Below are positions 636-54,142 of a stretch of DNA of 64,000 nt, in pieces. Numbering within the stretch: position 1 is the stretch's first letter; each line of letters begins with the position of its first letter. A model generated the notes under the pieces. The model did no database searches, was not told the DNA's origin, and was given only the letters and a program-made list of their open reading frames with translations. Both the position numbers and the translations under genes were made by a program. This DNA is from Glycomyces lechevalierae (lineage in GTDB: Bacteria; Actinomycetota; Actinomycetes; Mycobacteriales; Micromonosporaceae). The stretch lies in NCBI RefSeq assembly GCF_027622945.1, contig NZ_JAPZVQ010000002.1:396386-460385 (forward strand). Reading direction: 5' to 3'.

Positions 636-651
636 TGTCGGGAAACCGACA
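636..651. promoter_or_regulatory. TGTCGG-N4-CCGACA palindrome, copy 1
   Basis: Perfect 6+6 inverted repeat with spacer GAAA, in the gap between the PadR gene and the secreted-protein gene, about 100 bp upstream of the latter's start. The same arms with the same 4-nt spacing occur at 28735-28750 and 53979-53994, also between genes. Probably a binding site for an unidentified dimeric regulator. Confidence 0.5.
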
Positions 652-22157: not shown

Positions 22158-23765
22158 ATGGCACGTGGCAGCCAACCACCAAGGCCGGCCCCCCGGCCTT
22201 CCAAGGCGCCCAGCAGGGGCGGCGCGAAAGGCGGGGCCGCTCGAGGCGGAGCGAAAGGCGGCGCCAAGGGCGGTGCGCCGAAGAAGGGCGCCCAGCCGGG
22301 CGTCCGCAAGGCCGCGCCGGGCAAGGCGATGCCCCGCACCGGACGCCAGCCGGCGGGCCGGGGCGCGACGGCCGAGCAGCTGCGCCAGCAGCGGCTCATG
22401 CTCGACCAGCAGCGGCGCTCGCGCGAAGCGCGCTGGTGGGCGATCAACCAGCACGCGCTGAAGGACCTCCACTCCCGCCAGCACCACTCGGCCGGCGGCG
22501 AGGCGATCGGCACGACCCTCAACGGCGACAGGCGGATGCGCTGGCGCACCTCCCACGCGGTCGGTGCCATCACTTTACTGGTCATCTCCCTTTTCCTGGC
22601 TTCCATGGCCGTCGGCGCCCAGAGCGTCGGCATCGCCGTGGCCTCGTTCGCGTGCTTCGCGGGCTGCATCGCGTTCGTCACCGTCGAGCATTCGGCGCGG
22701 CGCTTCCCGCAGCCGGTCCCGGTCCCGCCGCTCATCGGGCAGCACCGGCTCGAGGACCTGATCGTCGAGGACGACCCGCCGCGCCCGGCCGCCGTGAAGG
22801 AGCCGGCGGCGAGCTCGCTCGACGACCTGTTCGAGCCCGCACCGCGCCCTGAACCCGCCCCCGAGAAGGTCACGGCGCAGGCCCCGGTACCGGAGTCGGC
22901 GAAGGTCGAGCCGCCGTCCGCTCCCACCGTCGTGATCGTGGAAGCCGTTGAGGTCCAAGACGAACCGGACGAGGCCGTGGTCGCGGCCGCGCCCGGGCGG
23001 ACGCTCATCACCGAGCCGATCGACGCCGAGCTCATTGATGAAGAAGACACAGGCGAGGACGACGCGCCCGCGCCGCCCGCCCCCGTCGCCGAGTCCGCTC
23101 CCCTGCCGAACGATCCGCCGGCCGGCGGGGCGTTCACGCTCCCCAGCGAGCAGGTCGGCGGCGCCCCGCACGGCCCGAACGCAACGGGCGCAACGGGCGC
23201 AACGGGATCCAGCGCACCTGCTGCGGCCCCCGCTCCCCCGGTCGACCCGCCCGCGCCGCCGAAAGGACCCATCGCCGAGGCCGTGACGAAGCTCAAGGCC
23301 CCGTCCCCGCCGCGCCAGCGGACCTCGGAAGAGGGCAGCAGCCTCGCCCGCGACCTGGCCGAACTGCTCCTCTCCGAGGAGCGGCTCGGCGGCACCGACG
23401 TCACCGACGTGGCCGCGACCCTCGTCGTCGCCGACCTCCAGCGCTCCGTCGAGTTCTACACGGACGCTTTGGGTCTGCAGATCGCCGACCGCACCGAGGA
23501 GGCCGCCGTCCTCGACGCCGGCTTCGGCAAGATCCTCCTCTGGGAGCGCCCCGACGCGCCGCCCGGCGAGACGGGGATCATGCACCTCACCTTCGAGGTC
23601 GGCGACATCGACGCCACCTACCAGGAGATGAACCAGGCCGGCGTCGAGTTCCTGCACCTGCCTCGCACCGCGCTGCTCGGCCAGAACTTCGAGATGCGGG
23701 CCGCGTCCTTCCGCGACCCCGACGGCCACGGCCTGGCCATCACCGAACACCGGGAGCGCGACTAA
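22158..23765 (+). CDS. Membrane-tethered VOC-domain protein
   Basis: 535 aa with an unusual layout: a Gly/Ala/Lys/Arg-rich basic N-terminus (1 to about 75), a positively charged helical stretch, two membrane segments (about 135-155, AITLLVISLFLASMAVGA, and 158-178, IAVASFACFAGCIAFVTV), a long Pro/Ala/Glu-rich acidic linker (about 190-410), and a C-terminal vicinal-oxygen-chelate (glyoxalase/bleomycin-resistance-like) domain at about 415-535 (DVAATLVVADLQRSVEFYTDALGLQI ... ASFRDPDGHGLAITEHRE). Both termini would face the cytoplasm. Only 39 nt separate it from the SCO2521-like gene. Role unknown. Confidence 0.82.
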   Translation: MARGSQPPRPAPRPSKAPSRGGAKGGAARGGAKGGAKGGAPKKGAQPGVRKAAPGKAMPRTGRQPAGRGATAEQLRQQRLMLDQQRRSREARWWAINQHALKDLHSRQHHSAGGEAIGTTLNGDRRMRWRTSHAVGAITLLVISLFLASMAVGAQSVGIAVASFACFAGCIAFVTVEHSARRFPQPVPVPPLIGQHRLEDLIVEDDPPRPAAVKEPAASSLDDLFEPAPRPEPAPEKVTAQAPVPESAKVEPPSAPTVVIVEAVEVQDEPDEAVVAAAPGRTLITEPIDAELIDEEDTGEDDAPAPPAPVAESAPLPNDPPAGGAFTLPSEQVGGAPHGPNATGATGATGSSAPAAAPAPPVDPPAPPKGPIAEAVTKLKAPSPPRQRTSEEGSSLARDLAELLLSEERLGGTDVTDVAATLVVADLQRSVEFYTDALGLQIADRTEEAAVLDAGFGKILLWERPDAPPGETGIMHLTFEVGDIDATYQEMNQAGVEFLHLPRTALLGQNFEMRAASFRDPDGHGLAITEHRERD

Positions 23766-23804: not shown

Positions 23805-24815
23805 ATGCTCATCGTCGGCGAGATCCACACCGCACTGCTGCCGCACTCGCGGCCGCTCACGCCCGAAGAGGCCCGCGCGGCGCTCTCGCTCGCCGTCGGC
23901 GAGTCCGTCGTCCAATGGGCGCGCCCCGTCCCGCACACCGCCTCCCCGACCCTCCTCCACGGCGTCGACTGCCGACTCCCGTTGGGGCCCAAGCCGGACA
24001 GCCACCACGCGGAGGAGGACGACCGGAACGGCTCACTGCGGGCCGTCGGCTCCGTCGCCTCCCGCGCGGTCCTCACCGGCGGGCAGCTCCTCCAGGGCTC
24101 CGCGTGGGCCTCCGTGTCCCTCTCCCAGCATCCGCGGCGCATGCCCTGGTCGTACTACCTGGCCCGGCCCGGGATGCTCGAGACCATCGGGAAGTTCGAG
24201 GCCGCGCGCCTCGCCGAGGGCTACCTCATCGCCGAGCGCCGCCCCGACCGCGCGAAACTCCTCGACACCGCCGCCGTCGCCCGCCACTCCATCCACGACG
24301 TGCTCGCCCGGCCCATGTTCGACCAGCGCCCGCCCATCAAGACCGGCTCGACCCGGCTGCGCTGGGCCGCGATCACCGACCCCGCGCAGGAGCGGACCGT
24401 CGCGTTCCGCCTGGCGGGCAACGACAGGCGCCGCCTGCGCATCGTCACCGGACCGGTCGACCCCGAGCAGGTGGCGGCCGCCGCCGAGGACCTCGCCGTC
24501 CACGACTGGCTGCTCACCGCCGTCGCCGCGCGGGTCGCGCTCGCGAAGATCGGCGAGGACTCGCGGCACACGCTCCGCACGCTCCGGCCCGTCGTCGACC
24601 ACCTGCTGCACCTGTGGTCGGCGGGCGCCCGCACCTCCCGCGACCTCGAGTTCATGTGGGACGCACTGGAACGGCGCCCCGGGCTCACCCGGCAGTGGAC
24701 GACGATGACCGAGCGGGTGCGGTCCCAGATCGACTACGGCGCGGCCGATCTGGCCGCGCAGATCCTCGACCTCATGGAGCAGCGCCAGCGCGGCGGCGGC
24801 GCGTTCCTGCGCTGA
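23805..24815 (+). CDS. SCO2521-family protein
   Basis: 336 aa, no transmembrane segment or enzymatic motif I can recognise. Starts MLIVGEIHTALLPHSRPLTPEEAR; mostly helical C-terminal half. Size and placement with the three following genes match my memory of the actinobacterial SCO2521 family, named only after the Streptomyces coelicolor locus. GGAG lies nine bases before the ATG. Converges with the SCO2522-like gene leaving two bases between stops and no terminator. Confidence 0.7.
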   Translation: MLIVGEIHTALLPHSRPLTPEEARAALSLAVGESVVQWARPVPHTASPTLLHGVDCRLPLGPKPDSHHAEEDDRNGSLRAVGSVASRAVLTGGQLLQGSAWASVSLSQHPRRMPWSYYLARPGMLETIGKFEAARLAEGYLIAERRPDRAKLLDTAAVARHSIHDVLARPMFDQRPPIKTGSTRLRWAAITDPAQERTVAFRLAGNDRRRLRIVTGPVDPEQVAAAAEDLAVHDWLLTAVAARVALAKIGEDSRHTLRTLRPVVDHLLHLWSAGARTSRDLEFMWDALERRPGLTRQWTTMTERVRSQIDYGAADLAAQILDLMEQRQRGGGAFLR

Positions 24816-24817
24816 AG

Positions 24818-25816
24818 TTACAGGGGCCCTTGGAAGATGTAGCTGAGGCGGTCGACGAGCTCCTCCGGGAGGACCATGCCCTCGCGTTCGGCGGACTTGC
24901 GGATGATCTCGATCGCGCTCGCCTCGGGCCGCACGGAGCCGCAGATGACGCGCACCGCGTGCTCGACCTCGAGGTAGTTCACGGAGAGGATCGAGACGGT
25001 GCGGTAGGCCGGGAACGGGTACGCGGCGGGTTCGAGCTGCAGGATCGGCGGCATCGCCTCCCACGTCTCGGGGAAGCGGGCGCGGGCGGGCCGGTCGGGG
25101 TCGTGGCCGTGCTCGTCTGGGACGACTTCGGCGACGGCTTCGGGGACGCCGATGCGGCGGCCCTGGTTGCGGAGCACGCCGAGGCGCAGGAGCTGCCAGA
25201 CGGCGGCGAGCATCGGGCAGGACCAGCGGCGGCCCTCGGCGGTGTCGCTCCAGAGTTCGACGTCGAGGAACACCGAGTGGTCGCGTTTGGCGTTCTGGCT
25301 GGGCGGGCGCCACTGGTCGGCCTGGCCGACCATGGCCACGCCCTTGGCCTTGGGGCTGGGCACGCCGTTGCAGAGCCAGCCGGAGCGGGCGACCGTGGGG
25401 CGGGAGCCGTTCGCGCCGGGCGGCGGCTCGAACACGATCCGGTCGGCGACGAGTCCGGCGAGCTGCAGCGGGCCCATGGTGGCGCACGCGGATTCGCGGG
25501 CGAGGTAGTCGATGCGCAGGCCCGCGTCGGCGGCCGCCTCGGTGATGACAGCGATGAGCTCTTCGGGAGGGGGCATGCCCTGCTGGCTGTAGTCGTCCAC
25601 GAGGTAGCAGGTGCTCACGCGGGGGCGGCGGCCGCCGAGGCGTTTGGAGAGGGCCTCGGTGGTGCCGTGGACCCAGGCCGCGGCGGAGGCCATCTCGGCT
25701 TTGAGCGTGTCGGGGCGGGCGAGGTCGTCGGCGTAGAGGTGGCCGACCTCGATGGAGAGGTGGGACATGCCGAAGCGCTCGGTCCGCTGCTTCGCGCTGG
25801 TCTCTTCGTAGGTCAT
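24818..25816 (-). CDS. SCO2522-family protein
   Basis: 332 aa, soluble, no known catalytic signature seen. Landmarks: HLSIEVGHLYADDL near the start, VSTCYLVDDYSQQGMPPPEEL, YLARESACATMGPLQLAGLVAD, and a C-terminal YRTVSILSVNYLEVEHAVRVI. I match it to the SCO2522 family by size and by position just downstream of the variant P-loop gene, separated by 8 nt. A later Met (25768) is a possible start but has no ribosome site. Confidence 0.7.
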   Translation of the reverse strand: MTYEETSAKQRTERFGMSHLSIEVGHLYADDLARPDTLKAEMASAAAWVHGTTEALSKRLGGRRPRVSTCYLVDDYSQQGMPPPEELIAVITEAAADAGLRIDYLARESACATMGPLQLAGLVADRIVFEPPPGANGSRPTVARSGWLCNGVPSPKAKGVAMVGQADQWRPPSQNAKRDHSVFLDVELWSDTAEGRRWSCPMLAAVWQLLRLGVLRNQGRRIGVPEAVAEVVPDEHGHDPDRPARARFPETWEAMPPILQLEPAAYPFPAYRTVSILSVNYLEVEHAVRVICGSVRPEASAIEIIRKSAEREGMVLPEELVDRLSYIFQGPL

Positions 25817-25824
25817 GGGTCCAC

Positions 25825-26769
25825 TCAATCGATGCCGCGGGCGATGGCCTCGAGGCCGGGCACGAACAGCTCCTCGGCGGAGCGCACGGCCAGCTCGGAG
25901 AAGGCCTTGACGGTCTCCTGGTTGGCGATGTCGAGCGTGACGGTGTCGGCGTCGGTGATGATCTGCTCGCGCCACTGCAGGACCGGGTCGAGCGGGACCG
26001 ACCCGAGGAGGTTCATGCGGCCCAGTTTGAGGCGGGCGGCCATCTGGTGGAGGTCCGCGTCGATCTTGCGGAGCCAGCGCACCTGGGTGGGTTTGAGGCC
26101 GGAGAGGTCGGCGCCGTCGGGGTCGACGACGGCGGTGCGCACGTAGCGGATGGAGGCGAGGAGTTTGCGCTGGTAGTCGTCGCCGAGGGAGGTGGCGGTC
26201 TCGACGAGGCCGCGTTCGCCGTAGACGAGGGAGTGGGCGGCGAGCACGTGCTGCTTGGTCCAGCGGTGGTAGACGATCCAGCGCCAGGGGAGGTTGGCGA
26301 GTTCGGGGCGGGCGGTGGCGGCCATGACCATCTCGGTGGCGTGGGAGCGGCCGGCGGAGAGGTCGACGATGACGAGGTCGAATTCGCGCGAGAGCTCTTG
26401 GAGGAGGTTGACGCAGCGGTCGACGGTGGTCTCGTCGCCGGGGAACTCGGAGCCGTCGGCGTCGCCGGGGCAGAGGACGAGTTCGCCGGCGCCGTCGGGC
26501 CGCGCCTGGAGTTCGGCGCGGTCGCTGGTGGCCCAGACGGAGTGGCGTTCGGGCTCGGACGCGAGGTCCTGGAGGTATTCGTGGATGCCGTTGCCGTAGG
26601 TGCCGTGTTCGAGGTCGTCGATGGCGAAAATGGCTCCGGCCGTGGGGGAACCGAAGTCGAAGTCCACATAGCACACGTTGGCGCCTTGGAGGGCGCGGCG
26701 GTAGGCGAGGTTGGACGAGGAGACGGAGCGTCCGGTGCCGCCCTTGTCCGAGGTCGCGAACAGCAGCAT
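25825..26769 (-). CDS. SCO2523-family variant P-loop protein (ParA/MinD-like)
   Basis: 314 aa. The N-terminus reads MLLFATSDKGGTGRSVSSSN: a deviant Walker A of the ParA/MinD/SIMIBI class with signature Lys9 kept and the usual second Lys replaced by Arg14. Then VCYVDFDFGSPTAG (switch-I-like, DxDxGxPT) and FDLVIVDLSAGRSHATEMVM (Walker B Asp). C-terminal half about 200-314 is family-specific. ATG 26769 has GGAG seven bases upstream; two bases separate it from the preceding stop. May be a nucleotide-dependent positioning or switch protein; not a true ParA, as no ParB or parS is nearby. Confidence 0.8.
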   Translation of the reverse strand: MLLFATSDKGGTGRSVSSSNLAYRRALQGANVCYVDFDFGSPTAGAIFAIDDLEHGTYGNGIHEYLQDLASEPERHSVWATSDRAELQARPDGAGELVLCPGDADGSEFPGDETTVDRCVNLLQELSREFDLVIVDLSAGRSHATEMVMAATARPELANLPWRWIVYHRWTKQHVLAAHSLVYGERGLVETATSLGDDYQRKLLASIRYVRTAVVDPDGADLSGLKPTQVRWLRKIDADLHQMAARLKLGRMNLLGSVPLDPVLQWREQIITDADTVTLDIANQETVKAFSELAVRSAEELFVPGLEAIARGID

Positions 26770-26771
26770 CG

Positions 26772-28643
26772 TCACACTCCGGTCTCGGCGTCGCGCCCGG
26801 CCGCGATGAGCCGGTCGAGGTCGATGAGGGCCTTGACGCCCAGGGCGAACGCGGTGCCGGGGCGCTCGTCGACGACCTCCTTGGCGTGGCGGATCGTCAG
26901 GCCGACGGAGCGGATCTCCTGCGCGAGCGCCGGTCCGGCGTGGCCGGAGCCGCGCAGCAGCTCCTGGTCGTAGACGTGCTCGGCCTCGACGAGGAGTTCG
27001 TGCGCGAGGTCCTCCAGGCTGCGGGAGCGGGCGGGTTCGGAGGTCGCGAACTGGGCGGCGAGGACCATGGCCTCGACGACGCGGATCGTGAAGTGCCAGG
27101 AGGGGTCCTCGAACCAGTTGACGAGTTCGCCGTAGACCTGCTTCGGCTGGTCCCACAGGCGCGCGGCGCTGCCTTCGCGGATGCGCCTGCGCGCCAGGTG
27201 CTCCCAGACGAGGTCGGCGACCTCGAGGAGCTCGGCGCGGGACTCGATGGTGACGAGGAGGCTCGCGGCGTGGTAGAGGCGCTTGAGCAGCAGGGGCGCG
27301 AAGTCGACCATGTTCCAGACCATGGCGGGGCCGTCGGGCTTCTCGATGCCGGCGAGTTCGGCCTTCACGCCGGGGAAGTGCGTCTCGATGGCGCGGTCCC
27401 CGGCGAGGGCGCGGCGGGTGATGCGGCCGCGGTTGGCGAGTTCGACGAGGACGTCCCCGAGGCGGATGAGGTCGTCGTCGCCGCCGCGGGAGGCGCCGAA
27501 GGTGTCGGTGGCGACCGCGCAGACGAGGAGCGAGTAGTAGTCGTACTCGAGGCCGTCGGTGGTGCGCCAGGGGACGTCCTCGAGCGGCCACTTCGAGCCG
27601 CCGCCGAAGGACGCGACCATGGCCCAGTAGCGGCGGGTGACGTCCATGCGGAGCTGCAGGGACTGGGCGAGGCGCTGCTCCTCCTCGGTGAGGAGGTTGC
27701 GGCGCATCACCCTGGGAGAGAACAGGGTCTGGATCGCTTCGAGGGCGACCACGGTGAAGTAGAGGTACGGGGCGTCCTCGGCGCGGCCGAGGCGCTGCGT
27801 CGAGGTGTCGGAGACGTCCGGGATGTCCGGGGCCTTCTCGACGACGGACCAGGACCAGCCGATCTCGAAGAGCTTCGTGGGGGCCTCGACGCCCGCGGTG
27901 CCGCCGGAGCCGACGGTGATGGTGCGCAGGGTGGCGATGATGTCGTCCGCGGCCTCGCGGAAGCGGCGCACGATCTTGCGGTCGGCCTGGCCGTCCACGT
28001 TGATGAGGGCGATGAGCTGGCGGCCGAAGTCGTCGTCGGCGTCGAACGTGGACACCGCGAAGGAGCGCAGCAGGCCGGTGATCGCGCCGAGGAGGCGGCG
28101 GTGGATGGCCACCTGCACCTGGTCGACCTCGCGGCTGAGGTCGGCGCGGCCCATGCGGTCGACCGTGGGCTGGAAGTCCGCGAGGAAGGTGAGGGACGCG
28201 AGGCACAGCGGGATCGAGAGCGCGAACCCCTCGGTGACGTCGATGGCGCGCTGCTCGGGCTGGGCCTTCTGGGTGCGGTCCTTGCGGTGCATGTTGGAGC
28301 CGCCGGAGTAGACGGGGACGCCGTCGTCGTCCACGTGCTTCTCCATGTAGTCCTTGACGAGGCGCATGATCCGGATGGGGATCTCGACGGCGTCGCCGAG
28401 CCCCGAGAACGCCTCGAGGACGGCGTCGCTCGTGGCGTCAGGGTCGGCGTAGTTGAGCTCGGGGAGCTCCTGCGCTGGGTACAGCAGGCAGAGCAGCTGC
28501 TGGGCGTCGCCCACGGCGTCGGACTGGTTGCGGCCGCCCCAGTGCCAGCCCTTGCGTTTGCCGCCGTCCTCGGCCGCACGCCAGCTGTAGGCCACCTGGG
28601 CCCGCCAGATGTCCAGGAGCTGTTGCCGAGGCTGCATCTTCAC
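26772..28643 (-). CDS. SCO2524-family protein
   Basis: 623 aa, largely alpha-helical, no membrane segment. N-terminus QQLLDIWRAQVAYSWRAAE, a region GKRKGWHWGGRNQSDAVGDAQQLLCLLYP, and MRRNLLTEEEQRLAQSLQLRMDVTRRYW are landmarks. Length and position as first gene of the three-gene minus-strand unit match the SCO2524 family. GTG 28643 or ATG 28637 may start it; neither has a strong ribosome site. Promoter probably in the 200-bp divergent gap holding a TGTCGG palindrome. Confidence 0.72.
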   Translation of the reverse strand: MKMQPRQQLLDIWRAQVAYSWRAAEDGGKRKGWHWGGRNQSDAVGDAQQLLCLLYPAQELPELNYADPDATSDAVLEAFSGLGDAVEIPIRIMRLVKDYMEKHVDDDGVPVYSGGSNMHRKDRTQKAQPEQRAIDVTEGFALSIPLCLASLTFLADFQPTVDRMGRADLSREVDQVQVAIHRRLLGAITGLLRSFAVSTFDADDDFGRQLIALINVDGQADRKIVRRFREAADDIIATLRTITVGSGGTAGVEAPTKLFEIGWSWSVVEKAPDIPDVSDTSTQRLGRAEDAPYLYFTVVALEAIQTLFSPRVMRRNLLTEEEQRLAQSLQLRMDVTRRYWAMVASFGGGSKWPLEDVPWRTTDGLEYDYYSLLVCAVATDTFGASRGGDDDLIRLGDVLVELANRGRITRRALAGDRAIETHFPGVKAELAGIEKPDGPAMVWNMVDFAPLLLKRLYHAASLLVTIESRAELLEVADLVWEHLARRRIREGSAARLWDQPKQVYGELVNWFEDPSWHFTIRVVEAMVLAAQFATSEPARSRSLEDLAHELLVEAEHVYDQELLRGSGHAGPALAQEIRSVGLTIRHAKEVVDERPGTAFALGVKALIDLDRLIAAGRDAETGV

Positions 28644-28734: not shown

Positions 28735-28750
28735 TGTCGGCTACCCGACA
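28735..28750. promoter_or_regulatory. TGTCGG-N4-CCGACA palindrome, copy 2
   Basis: Spacer CTAC. It lies midway in the divergent gap, 92 bp from the SCO2524-like start and 94 bp from the small membrane protein start, so could control either side. Same arms and spacing as 636-651 and 53979-53994. Confidence 0.5.
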
Positions 28751-52764: not shown

Positions 52765-52960
52765 TGCGTCGCTTTCCTTCGCGATCAGCGGTTTCACCGC
52801 TGCGAGCCCGCGCTTTCCAGCGGGGCTGGAAAACCGGGAAGTAATGATTATCGAGTATCGTTGCACAGAATGCCAGAGCCGACAACTACCGCAGTGCGCG
52901 AGTCGGTTCCAGTGCGCCGAGCCTTACCACTAGAAGCACCCGCCAGTGAGGTTGACCGAC

Positions 52961-54142
52961 GTGACGAACCAGAGCAAGCTGCGCCTCATGTGCGTGCACG
53001 CCCACCCCGACGACGAGTCGAGCAAGGGCGCCGGCATGATGGCGCGCTACGTGCGCGAGGGCATCGAGGTCCTCGTCGTCACGTGCACCGGCGGTGAGCG
53101 CGGGGACGTGCTCAACCCGAAGATGGACCGGCCCGAGGTGCAGGAGAACCTGCCGCGCATCCGCAACGAGGAGATGGCGCGGGCCCGCGAGATCCTGGGC
53201 GTCGAGCAGCACTGGCTGGGCTTCATCGACTCCGGGCTCCCGGACGGCTGGCTCCCCGACTCCGGCACCGAGCTGCCCGAGGACGCGTTCTACCTCGTGC
53301 CCACCGAGGAGGCCGCCGCGCCGCTCGTGGAGGTCATGCGCTCGTTCAAGCCGCACGTGGTCACCACGTACGACGAAGAGGGCGGCTACCCGCACCCCGA
53401 CCACGTGAAGACCCACGAGGTGTCCGTCGCGGCCTTCGCCGCCGCCGGCGACCCCGAGAAGTACCAGGGCCTGGGCGAGCCGTGGCAGCCGCTCAAGCTC
53501 TACTACAACCACTCGTTCGGCAAGGCGCGCATCGAGGCTCTGCACTACGCGATGCTCGAGGCCGGCCTCGAGTCGCCGTACCGGGAGTGGATGGACGCGG
53601 GCGACTGGACCCGCGACAAGAGCGAGCGCGTGACGACGCGGATCGAGTGCGCCGAGTACTTCGACATCCGCGACGAGGCCCTGAAGGCCCACGCGACCCA
53701 GGTCGACCCGGACGGGTTCTGGTTCGCCGTGCCGCGCGAGATCCAGCAGAAGGCTTGGCCCACCGAGGATTACGAACTCGTCGAGTCGCACATCGAGACG
53801 CTGCTGCCCGAGGACGACCTCTTCTCCGGACTCCGGTTAGCGCTTCAGGAACACTGCTTCACTACGGCCCCAGGGAACCCCTGGGGCCGTTTTCTCCACT
53901 TGGGACCGTTTCGACCCCGTCCGTCGCCGTCTCGACACCCTATGGTCGGGTTCCGCGCACCCTCCGTGAGGAAACAACTGTCGGGCTCCCGACACCACGG
54001 TGTATTTCCTCGGAAAGTGCGGGAACCTTGCTGCAAGCGCGCCCCCGCGGGTTACCGTGCCGGGAGAACCGGGGCGAACCCGAGTCTGGGACGTATTCGC
54101 GGAGGCGGGCGCAGAACGGAGGTGACCCATGGTCAGTCGTGA
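52961..54142 (+). CDS. mca: Mycothiol S-conjugate amidase, 3' end apparently frameshifted
   Basis: Zinc amidase that cleaves mycothiol conjugates to mercapturates for export. AHPDDES near residue 13 and YPHPDH give the metal ligands; the LLPEDDLFSGLR end fits Mca at about 292 residues. Just there a TAG occurs one base out of frame (53838-53840); the literal frame runs about 100 aa further, through a T-tailed terminator (53864-53890) and into yqgE. A single extra base near 53833-53838, real or a sequencing error, explains this. GTG 52961 has GAGG nine bases upstream. Confidence 0.88.
   Translation: MTNQSKLRLMCVHAHPDDESSKGAGMMARYVREGIEVLVVTCTGGERGDVLNPKMDRPEVQENLPRIRNEEMARAREILGVEQHWLGFIDSGLPDGWLPDSGTELPEDAFYLVPTEEAAAPLVEVMRSFKPHVVTTYDEEGGYPHPDHVKTHEVSVAAFAAAGDPEKYQGLGEPWQPLKLYYNHSFGKARIEALHYAMLEAGLESPYREWMDAGDWTRDKSERVTTRIECAEYFDIRDEALKAHATQVDPDGFWFAVPREIQQKAWPTEDYELVESHIETLLPEDDLFSGLRLALQEHCFTTAPGNPWGRFLHLGPFRPRPSPSRHPMVGFRAPSVRKQLSGSRHHGVFPRKVREPCCKRAPAGYRAGRTGANPSLGRIRGGGRRTEVTHGQS
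53864..53893 (+). terminator. Rho-independent terminator after mca
   Basis: ACGGCCCCAGG (53864-53874) pairs with CCTGGGGCCGT (53880-53890), loop GAACC, followed directly by TTTTCT. The most textbook terminator on the plus strand. It lies inside the literal mca frame, which argues that frame is wrong there. Confidence 0.85.
53979..53994. promoter_or_regulatory. TGTCGG-N4-CCGACA palindrome, copy 3
   Basis: Spacer GCTC. It lies after the mca terminator and 135 bp upstream of the yqgE start, next to a smaller ACACC/GGTGT dyad. Same arms and spacing as the copies at 636-651 and 28735-28750. Confidence 0.5.

What the first reader, a model, noticed from the sequence alone, without database searches (positions are those of the whole stretch)
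23805..28643. Four-gene SCO2521-SCO2524-like module around a variant P-loop protein
Seen: three tightly packed minus-strand genes (623, 314 and 332 aa; gaps 2 and 8 nt) meet a 336-aa plus-strand gene with two bases between stops. Three of the four products show no recognisable domain; the 314-aa one is ParA/MinD-like. Known: sizes and order match, from memory, the actinobacterial families named SCO2521, SCO2522, SCO2523 (variant P-loop) and SCO2524, conserved but without an assigned function. Inference: they work as one system, perhaps nucleotide-switched positioning or assembly. This is the best candidate for an undescribed system here. The usual fifth member, a SAM methyltransferase (SCO2525), is absent from the window.
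Basis: partly seen in the sequence, partly recalled or inferred. Interest (0 to 1): 0.85.

Follow-up and report, generated by a model that had tools for sequence, protein, structure and literature searches.

The report
Four-gene actinobacterial switch module, function unassigned
Four genes of unassigned function that soil actinobacteria carry all together or not at all; they look like the core of an undescribed, ATP-switched signalling system related to bacterial self/non-self conflict systems.

Summary
The four genes lie as stated and pass the curated cut-offs of NCBIfam SCO2521, SCO2522, SCO2523 and SCO2524. Among 296 sampled genomes of the class, each family passes in the same 29. SCO2525 passes in 18 of those 29 and is not found in this genome. 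A commoner partner, 'c4' (N-terminal hydrophobic segments; one of two scanned copies passes DUF6879), is in 24 of the 29, in 0 of 16 module-less genomes and in 0 of 5 Glycomyces searched.

SCO2523 has a variant P-loop (KGGTGRS) and scores higher to the KGGVGR domain than to MinD. SCO2524 models well (pLDDT 86); its weak fold matches are often (alpha/alpha)6 toroids. In 7 of 25 Actinoplanes stretches and one Glycomyces locus, large Walker-A, mostly STAND-type proteins adjoin or replace module genes: 8 of 151 adjacent genes, 0 of 712 others.

Best reading: a chromosomal, nucleotide-switched signalling/effector module rather than a MinD-type positioner. No function is shown. The families are catalogued; I found no print mention of the c4 and STAND links.

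The parts
23805..24815 (+). SCO2521-family protein, 336 aa; convergent with SCO2522, as in 18 of 18 Glycomyces loci where SCO2521 is seen, and in Actinorhabdospora and some Actinoplanes loci
   Evidence: NF040565, 302.8 bits vs cut-off 150; no Pfam at E<=5; no solved-structure relative at E<=10; orientation
24818..25816 (-). SCO2522-family protein, 332 aa; invariant STC-DDY, DY-A-E, GWL-NG and HS-F-E residues suggest an enzyme or ligand pocket (inference)
   Evidence: NF040566, 390.8 vs 200; invariant columns in 36 rows, one a duplicate; AF2 model poor, pLDDT 58; no fold hit at E<=0.001
25825..26769 (-). SCO2523-family variant P-loop protein, 314 aa (alternative GTG start at 26775)
   Evidence: NF040564, 438.5 vs 200; NF047398 KGGVGR 47.1 bits; MinD 29.1 bits
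26725..26745 (-). P-loop KGGTGRS of SCO2523: signature Lys kept, P-loop Lys replaced by Arg
   Evidence: sequence; of 63 copies KGGTGRS in 57, KGGTGRT in 1, KGGAGRS in 1; of the other 4, three are cut by my gene caller and one (L189) is degenerate but still has Arg
26772..28643 (-). SCO2524-family protein, 623 aa; predicted helical fold, (alpha/alpha)6-toroid-like
   Evidence: NF040567, 701.9 vs 300; AF2 pLDDT 86.2, pTM 0.82; Foldseek against PDB, no hit at E<=0.001
28735..28750 (.). dyad TGTCGG-N4-CCGACA 91 nt upstream of SCO2524; candidate operator or hairpin
   Evidence: aligned upstream of SCO2524 in the window and 18 Glycomyces loci; arms exact in 10 of 19 Glycomyces loci, L013 included; 3 exact copies in the window, 0 in 100 shuffles
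22329..23765 (+). gene upstream of SCO2521, same strand, 39-nt gap: hydrophobic segment(s), low-complexity linker, C-terminal VOC/glyoxalase-like domain (domain recognised from memory, not scanned); possible substitute for c4 (inference)
   Evidence: same strand with gap -4 to 52 nt in the window and 18 Glycomyces loci; one or two hydrophobic segments in 19 of 19

Best explanation
The four genes encode the obligate core of a chromosomal signalling/effector system of multicellular actinobacteria. SHOWN: the four families occur together or not at all in the sample, in a tightly packed order, and three of them have no Pfam family. INFERRED: SCO2523, a MinD/ParA-type P-loop protein with a fixed Lys-to-Arg change (the KGGVGR type), binds nucleotide as a slow or locked switch rather than as a cycling positioning ATPase. 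It gates SCO2524, a toroid-like protein with a pocket that binds or processes a small polar ligand. SCO2521 and SCO2522 complete the complex. Where present, the membrane-type protein c4 anchors it, and SCO2525 (small-molecule-type SAM methyltransferase) and a GNAT enzyme modify its ligand or target. In some lineages a STAND NTPase is wired to SCO2524, or stands where SCO2524 should be, which fits an exchangeable input receptor.
For: Four family models over cut-off in the identical 29 of 296 genomes, in 5 families and 8 of 115 genera. Coupled order. 34 of 36 SCO2523 members match KGGVGR at E<=1e-5, against 22 of 36 for MinD. Nine KGGVGR matches over cut-off, in 6 of 12 genomes searched, lie in open frames of 900-1706 aa; 7 of the 8 whose motif I printed read YS[YF]KGG[TA]GR. 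PMC7159879 (passages and section 24 seen) describes inactive MinD/ParA-like domains in NTP-dependent conflict systems; equating these with KGGVGR proteins is mine. SCO2524 has no match in the G. luteolus genome as held, and an AAA/NB-ARC-like TPR gene lies in its place 19 nt before SCO2523. SCO2524 paralogues directly follow nSTAND1-WD40 genes in L117, L171 and L172. DUF4062-NACHT-HEAT genes adjoin SCO2522 at L184 and L190. Walker-A proteins of 800 aa or more: 8 of 151 adjacent against 0 of 712 non-adjacent genes; all 8 adjacent proteins of that size have the motif, 0 of 21 others do. c4 in 24 of 29 module genomes and 0 of 16 module-less ones.
Against: No function is shown for any of the four. 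The STAND link is confined to Actinoplanes (7 of 25 stretches) and one Glycomyces (1 of 19); none in the other genera (0 of 61 adjacent genes, duplicate included). Twelve of the 20 stretches were chosen for extra SCO2524 copies (3 of the 12 have such a neighbour, and 3 of the 8 others). The 8 cases reduce to about 5 arrangements. Genes running off a stretch are not counted, which trims large genes far from the module. Smaller Walker-A proteins (450-799 aa) show no such trend: 0 of 20 adjacent, 12 of 116 others. L174's AAA_16 and L013's NB-ARC matches are below Pfam's cut-offs, and in L188 no NTPase family is among the 25 of 47 rows shown. No relative of SCO2524 on plasmids, phages or viral contigs and conserved chromosomal neighbours within groups, unlike typical defence islands. 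No PADLOC match beyond weak P-loop hits. SCO2524's fold match never reaches E 0.001. SCO2523 is below the KGGVGR cut-off (47.1 vs 90 bits).
Confidence: 0.4

Rival explanations
1. ParA/MinD-type positioning or assembly system: SCO2523 cycles ATP, dimerises, and places SCO2524/2522/2521 at a membrane site through c4.
For: MinD, Mrp and ParA-like sequence over the P-loop region; signature Lys kept; a membrane-type partner (c4) in 24 of 29 genomes.
Against: Arg at the P-loop Lys position in all 60 copies with a legible motif; KGGVGR scores above MinD; c4 not found in 5 of 5 Glycomyces genomes; none of the other three proteins matched a ParB or MinE family.
Confidence: 0.2
2. A biosynthetic or small-molecule modification cluster: SCO2524 (toroid enzyme), SCO2522 (enzyme), SCO2525 (NNMT/PNMT-type methyltransferase) and GNAT make or modify a metabolite, perhaps a developmental signal; SCO2523 is a carrier or insertase of Mrp type.
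For: The SCO2525 copy of L088 matches NNMT/PNMT/TEMT (44.5 bits, cut-off 25); a GNAT gene is next to SCO2525 in 19 of the 23 stretches that hold it, one a duplicate; glycosidase/epimerase entries among the fold matches of SCO2524; a morphogenetic role of SCO2525 is cited.
Against: The window's genome lacks SCO2525 and c4, so these parts are dispensable. STAND partners are hard to fit.
Confidence: 0.25
3. Anti-phage or self/non-self defence system in the strict sense.
For: STAND, DUF4062 and KGGVGR associations; patchy presence in family f4 (unnamed, probably Streptomycetaceae): 8 genomes with it and at least 9 without; duplication and decay in Actinoplanes.
Against: Not found on mobile elements and with stable neighbours within groups; no PADLOC family beyond weak P-loop hits.
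Confidence: 0.12

Closest known systems
NCBIfam SCO2521-SCO2524 families (NF040565, NF040566, NF040564, NF040567), with SCO2525 (NF040568)
   Same: All four products score over the curated cut-offs; same order of 2524-2523-2522 as elsewhere.
   Different: Window genome lacks SCO2525 and c4 and has SCO2521 on the opposite strand.
KGGVGR-motif variant AAA ATPases (NF047398); by my reading also the 'inactive MinD/ParA-like' domains of conflict systems in PMC7159879 (passages and section 24 seen)
   Same: Lys-to-Arg P-loop; SCO2523 scores 47.1 bits.
   Different: Below the 90-bit cut-off; SCO2523 is a free-standing protein of about 300 aa, while the matches over cut-off lie in open frames of 900-1706 aa.
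MinD / ParA / Mrp (ApbC) ATPases
   Same: Sequence similarity over the P-loop region.
   Different: No P-loop Lys; D[LV]SAGRS in 61 of 63 copies where MinD-type proteins have another motif (recalled).
STAND NTPase systems (nSTAND1-WD40, DUF4062-NACHT-HEAT, NB-ARC-like-TPR)
   Same: Neighbours of module genes in some Actinoplanes and in G. luteolus.
   Different: None of the four window proteins matched a STAND family.
Streptomyces conservons (cvn; recalled)
   Same: Conserved actinobacterial operon with a P-loop switch (recalled); cvn12 and sco2521-2526 are named in one HupS-controlled group (PMC11472566, passage).
   Different: No conservon-named family among the matches of the four proteins.

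Membership tests
SCO2521/SCO2522/SCO2523/SCO2524 NCBIfam equivalogs | Whole-protein score over curated cut-off, one model per protein | tested here: met
   302.8/150, 390.8/200, 438.5/200, 701.9/300 bits
SCO2521-2525 gene set | SCO2525 methyltransferase in the genome | tested here: not met
   no match in the 92%-complete own genome; the same model passes in 18 of 296 genomes elsewhere
KGGVGR-motif variant AAA ATPase (NF047398) | Score over curated cut-off of 90 bits | tested here: not met
   47.1 bits; resembles it, not a member
MinD/ParA ATPases | Deviant Walker A KGGxGK[ST] | tested here: not met
   KGGTGRS; Pfam CbiA 23.6 bits vs 25.4 and ParA 23.2 vs 27.1
MinD/ParA ATPases | ATP-dependent dimerisation, hydrolysis and localisation | not testable with these tools
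   needs biochemistry and microscopy
Known or candidate anti-phage systems (PADLOC 2023) | Match to a system's component models | tested here: not met
   0 families for three proteins; only two PDC-M28B models over about 50 P-loop residues of SCO2523 (2.2e-5 and 0.0023)
VMAP/FxSxx-COOH conflict systems | MoxR-vWA-VMAP core or peptide-processing genes at the locus | not tested
   neighbours were not scanned with models for these
(alpha/alpha)6-toroid enzymes (SCO2524) | Significant structural match | tested here: inconclusive
   many GH76, GH88, GH9-like and epimerase entries near the top (fold class recalled), prob up to 0.89, TMt up to 0.53, best E 0.077; also unrelated helical folds in the list

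The most novel reading that the evidence does not exclude
SCO2524-2523-2522-2521 is the core of an undescribed, inflammasome-like signalling system of filamentous actinobacteria: a locked KGGTGR switch controls a toroidal effector, membrane and modifying subunits (c4, SCO2525, GNAT) are optional, and STAND receptors can be plugged in or swapped for a core subunit. It would link developmental control to conflict-type immunity in a model organism.
Probability: 0.28. Interest if true: 0.82.

Novelty: new variant of a known kind. Interest (0 to 1): 0.6.

Why it matters
A four-gene set that genomes keep whole or not at all is strong evidence for one machine, and the operon that gives the families their names sits in the model organism Streptomyces coelicolor, where SCO2525 is cited as needed for normal growth. 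The STAND and KGGVGR links give a concrete, testable idea of what kind of machine it is. They also name which protein to purify (SCO2523) and which natural swap to study (G. luteolus).

Tried and rejected
AF2 of SCO2522 (25 sequences) gave pLDDT 58 and no usable fold match. Profile searches of solved structures for SCO2521, SCO2522 and SCO2524 gave nothing meaningful (the YacP match to SCO2524, E 0.0083, covers only profile positions 530-604). Pfam scans of 36 SCO2522 and 37 SCO2524 members gave no consistent family (DUF6829 in 7 of 37, best E 0.0032). Foldseek against viral structures: nothing at E<=0.001. Mobility not found at this sensitivity: no SCO2524 relative on 72,556 plasmid records, 50,697 phage records or in the viral contigs. 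The 1.7-kb insertion between SCO2522 and SCO2521 in L001 holds no convincing gene. Distance correlations between families (Spearman 0.47-0.59 outside Glycomyces for the four; 0.20-0.64 for c4) were not used as evidence, because shared ancestry alone gives them. A Kyte-Doolittle scan flags a hydrophobic segment in 23 of 41 SCO2524 copies; since the AF2 model is a mostly helical, confident fold I did not read this as a membrane helix. The dyad upstream of SCO2524 was considered as a regulon box; of its two other exact copies in the window, one lies just downstream of a gene end and one inside my called ORF 52946-54142, so a hairpin role is as likely. Paper searches: SCO2521-SCO2525 appear in 3 papers and SCO2520/SCO2526/DUF6879/PF21806 in 1; in the passages that I saw none is a functional study of the four genes. 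KGGVGR appears in 1 unrelated paper. PMC8195603 has none of MinD, SIMIBI, FxsA, KGG or DUF6879. Subscription papers are mostly not held. Rows dropped before counts: the window itself and L109/L110 (orphan SCO2525-like loci) from the adjacency and pair counts, and L100, the same record as L021; still held L100 and gave 8 of 153 against 0 of 718.
Full report
WHAT IS THERE. The window lies in a genome close to Glycomyces: of 25 related loci found in named genomes, 19 are Glycomyces, the best 98% identical over SCO2523. The four ORFs are exactly as described and belong to NCBIfam SCO2521, SCO2522, SCO2523 and SCO2524, each far above its curated cut-off. Pfam has nothing at E<=5 for SCO2521, SCO2522 and SCO2524, and only sub-threshold MinD/ParA-type matches for SCO2523. 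SCO2525 is not found in the whole genome as held (completeness 92%).

CO-OCCURRENCE. In one sample of 296 genomes of the class, each of the four models passes its cut-off in 29 genomes, and the four lists are the same 29, in 5 families and 8 of 115 genera. SCO2525 passes in 18 of 296, all within the 29; five more genomes of family f4, which lack the module, have a weaker SCO2525-like gene. In a phylum-wide sample SCO2523 passes in 5 of 296. So the quartet is obligate in the sample, while SCO2525 is optional. Relatedness inflates such counts, but four models agreeing on presence and absence in every genome is not explained by it alone.

ANATOMY ACROSS GENOMES. I read 25 loci from named genomes and stretches around the module in the 28 other positive genomes, with a simple gene caller of my own. 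With the Actinoplanes stretches added and one duplicate dropped, 2524->2523 is co-directional in 66 of 66 neighbour pairs and 2523->2522 in 58 of 58, median gaps 0 and -4 nt. SCO2521 follows SCO2522 in the same direction in 29 pairs and is convergent in 19, the latter including 18 of 18 Glycomyces loci where it is seen. A further family, 'c4', sits beside SCO2521 or, in three loci, between SCO2523 and SCO2522. It has one or two hydrophobic segments near its N-terminus in 27 of 29 rows, one row a duplicate, and one of the two copies scanned passes Pfam DUF6879, 25.2 vs 23.9 bits. In whole-genome searches c4 is found in 24 of the 29 module genomes, 0 of 16 module-less genomes, 0 of 4 further Glycomyces and 1 of 1 Actinoplanes solisilvae. 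A GNAT gene is in 23 stretches and next to SCO2525 in 19 of them (duplicate included). The window's genome therefore has a stripped version. There the gene before SCO2521 (22329-23765), with its own hydrophobic segment(s), keeps the same strand and a gap of -4 to 52 nt in the window and 18 loci. I suggest, without proof, that it may replace c4.

THE P-LOOP. SCO2523 has KGGTGRS: the signature lysine is kept and the P-loop lysine is arginine. Of 63 copies, 57 read KGGTGRS, one KGGTGRT and one KGGAGRS; of the other four, three lack the N-terminus in my gene calls and one (L189) is degenerate but has Arg. 34 of 36 aligned members match the KGGVGR domain at E<=1e-5, 22 of 36 match MinD. In 12 genomes searched with that domain, nine matches over cut-off in 6 genomes lie in open frames of 900-1706 aa; 7 of the 8 whose motif I printed read YS[YF]KGG[TA]GR. 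I did not scan them for other domains. Kaur et al. 2020 (PMC7159879; passages and section 24 seen) describe 'inactive MinD/ParA-like' domains in NTP-dependent conflict systems found predominantly in bacteria with complex development, including AP-ATPase genes beside peptide-processing systems. That these are the KGGVGR proteins is my identification, from recall; the paper's main text does not contain 'KGG'.

STRUCTURE. SCO2524 models confidently from 25 sequences (pLDDT 86.2, pTM 0.82). Against the PDB no hit reaches E 0.001, but entries near the top are repeatedly sugar enzymes that I recall as (alpha/alpha)6 toroids: a GH9-like protein, GH76, GH88, cellobiose 2-epimerase, mannose isomerase; best E 0.077, prob up to 0.89, TMt up to 0.53. 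Other helical folds (armadillo, nuclear pore, designed proteins) are also listed at lower probability. I take this as a fold hint, not as homology. SCO2522 did not model.

THE STAND LINK. In G. luteolus (L013) SCO2524 has no match in the genome as held (completeness not given). In its place, 19 nt before SCO2523, is an 870-aa protein with AAA_22 and TPR_12 over cut-off and a sub-threshold NB-ARC match; the conserved dyad lies upstream of the GNAT gene that precedes it. Actinoplanes solisilvae has three SCO2524 genes: a full module (L116), a 2524-2523 pair (L020) and an orphan 2 nt after an nSTAND1-WD40 gene (L117). In that genus 51 of 67 genomes have SCO2524, 11 of them with more than one match (some are pieces of one gene). 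I fetched 20 stretches from these, 12 chosen for extra copies and 8 by hand along the score list. Two more orphans overlap the end of an nSTAND1-WD40 gene by 4 nt (L171, L172); L174's orphan overlaps the end of a WD40 protein with a sub-threshold AAA_16 match; DUF4062-NACHT-HEAT genes adjoin SCO2522 at L184 and L190; L188 has a 1671-aa Walker-A/WD40 protein beside SCO2524. That is 3 of 12 and 3 of 8 stretches; with the five Actinoplanes loci seen earlier, 7 of 25. Over 75 loci, proteins of 800 aa or more with a Walker A motif are 8 of 151 genes adjacent to module genes and 0 of 712 others; among proteins of that size, 8 of 8 adjacent and 0 of 21 others have the motif. Walker-A proteins of 450-799 aa show the opposite: 0 of 20 adjacent, 12 of 116 others. 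By group: Actinoplanes 7 of 56 adjacent, Glycomyces 1 of 36, others 0 of 61. The eight reduce to about five arrangements. Genes that run off a stretch are not counted. Counter-examples among the extra-copy stretches: L173 follows an ECF-sigma-like gene; L175-L182 have no such neighbour.

MOBILITY. No SCO2524 relative on plasmids, phages or viral contigs. Within groups the flanks are conserved. This argues against a mobile defence island.

LITERATURE. [quoted passage not shown] coelicolor. PMC6344877 (passage) gives it a morphogenetic role. PMC11472566 and PMC3017869 cite Gehring et al. 2004 for it (reference lists); that paper is not held and I did not read it. c4 may be SCO2520 and the GNAT gene SCO2526, by order only; I had no S. 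coelicolor sequence.

HOW IT MOST LIKELY WORKS. Shown: co-occurrence, order, P-loop change, confident SCO2524 model, c4 association, STAND neighbours in two genera. Inferred: SCO2523 is a nucleotide-binding switch with little or no turnover; SCO2524 is a pocket protein that it gates; SCO2521 and SCO2522 are core subunits; c4 anchors; SCO2525 and GNAT modify; STAND proteins feed in signals where present. I rate this 0.4, ahead of a biosynthetic cluster (0.25), a positioning system (0.2) and strict anti-phage defence (0.12).

NOVELTY. The families are catalogued, so the window copy by itself is a new member. The trimmed Glycomyces form, the c4 partner and the STAND exchange were not found in print within the searches made (for I saw passages of the papers listed, for the listing and passages of two). 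I therefore rate it a new variant of a known kind.

Noticed in passing
window 636-651, 28735-28750, 53979-53994: TGTCGG-N4-CCGACA occurs exactly three times, 0 in 100 shuffles. The copy at 28735 is aligned upstream of SCO2524 across Glycomyces; the one at 636 may be a terminator hairpin.
   Followed up: partly
L109:161-5856 and L110:891-6099: The weak SCO2525-like methyltransferases of two module-less f4 genomes overlap the end of a large gene; the L109 one is PAS-GGDEF-EAL fused to a class I/II aminotransferase.
   Followed up: partly
L013:6724-9981: In G. luteolus a second GNAT-like gene and the STAND-like gene stand between the conserved dyad and SCO2523, as if one operon.
   Followed up: partly
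L180 and L181: Compound modules in Actinoplanes with two SCO2524 genes, more than one c4 and SCO2525 between or beside them.
   Followed up: no
L175, L176, L189: Split or degenerate module copies in Actinoplanes (e.g. a P-loop without KGG in L189), suggesting the system is dispensable there.
   Followed up: no
L015:1801-6286: Four genes inserted upstream of SCO2524 in G. buryatensis; three of the four were scanned, no Pfam or PADLOC match at E<=0.1.
   Followed up: partly
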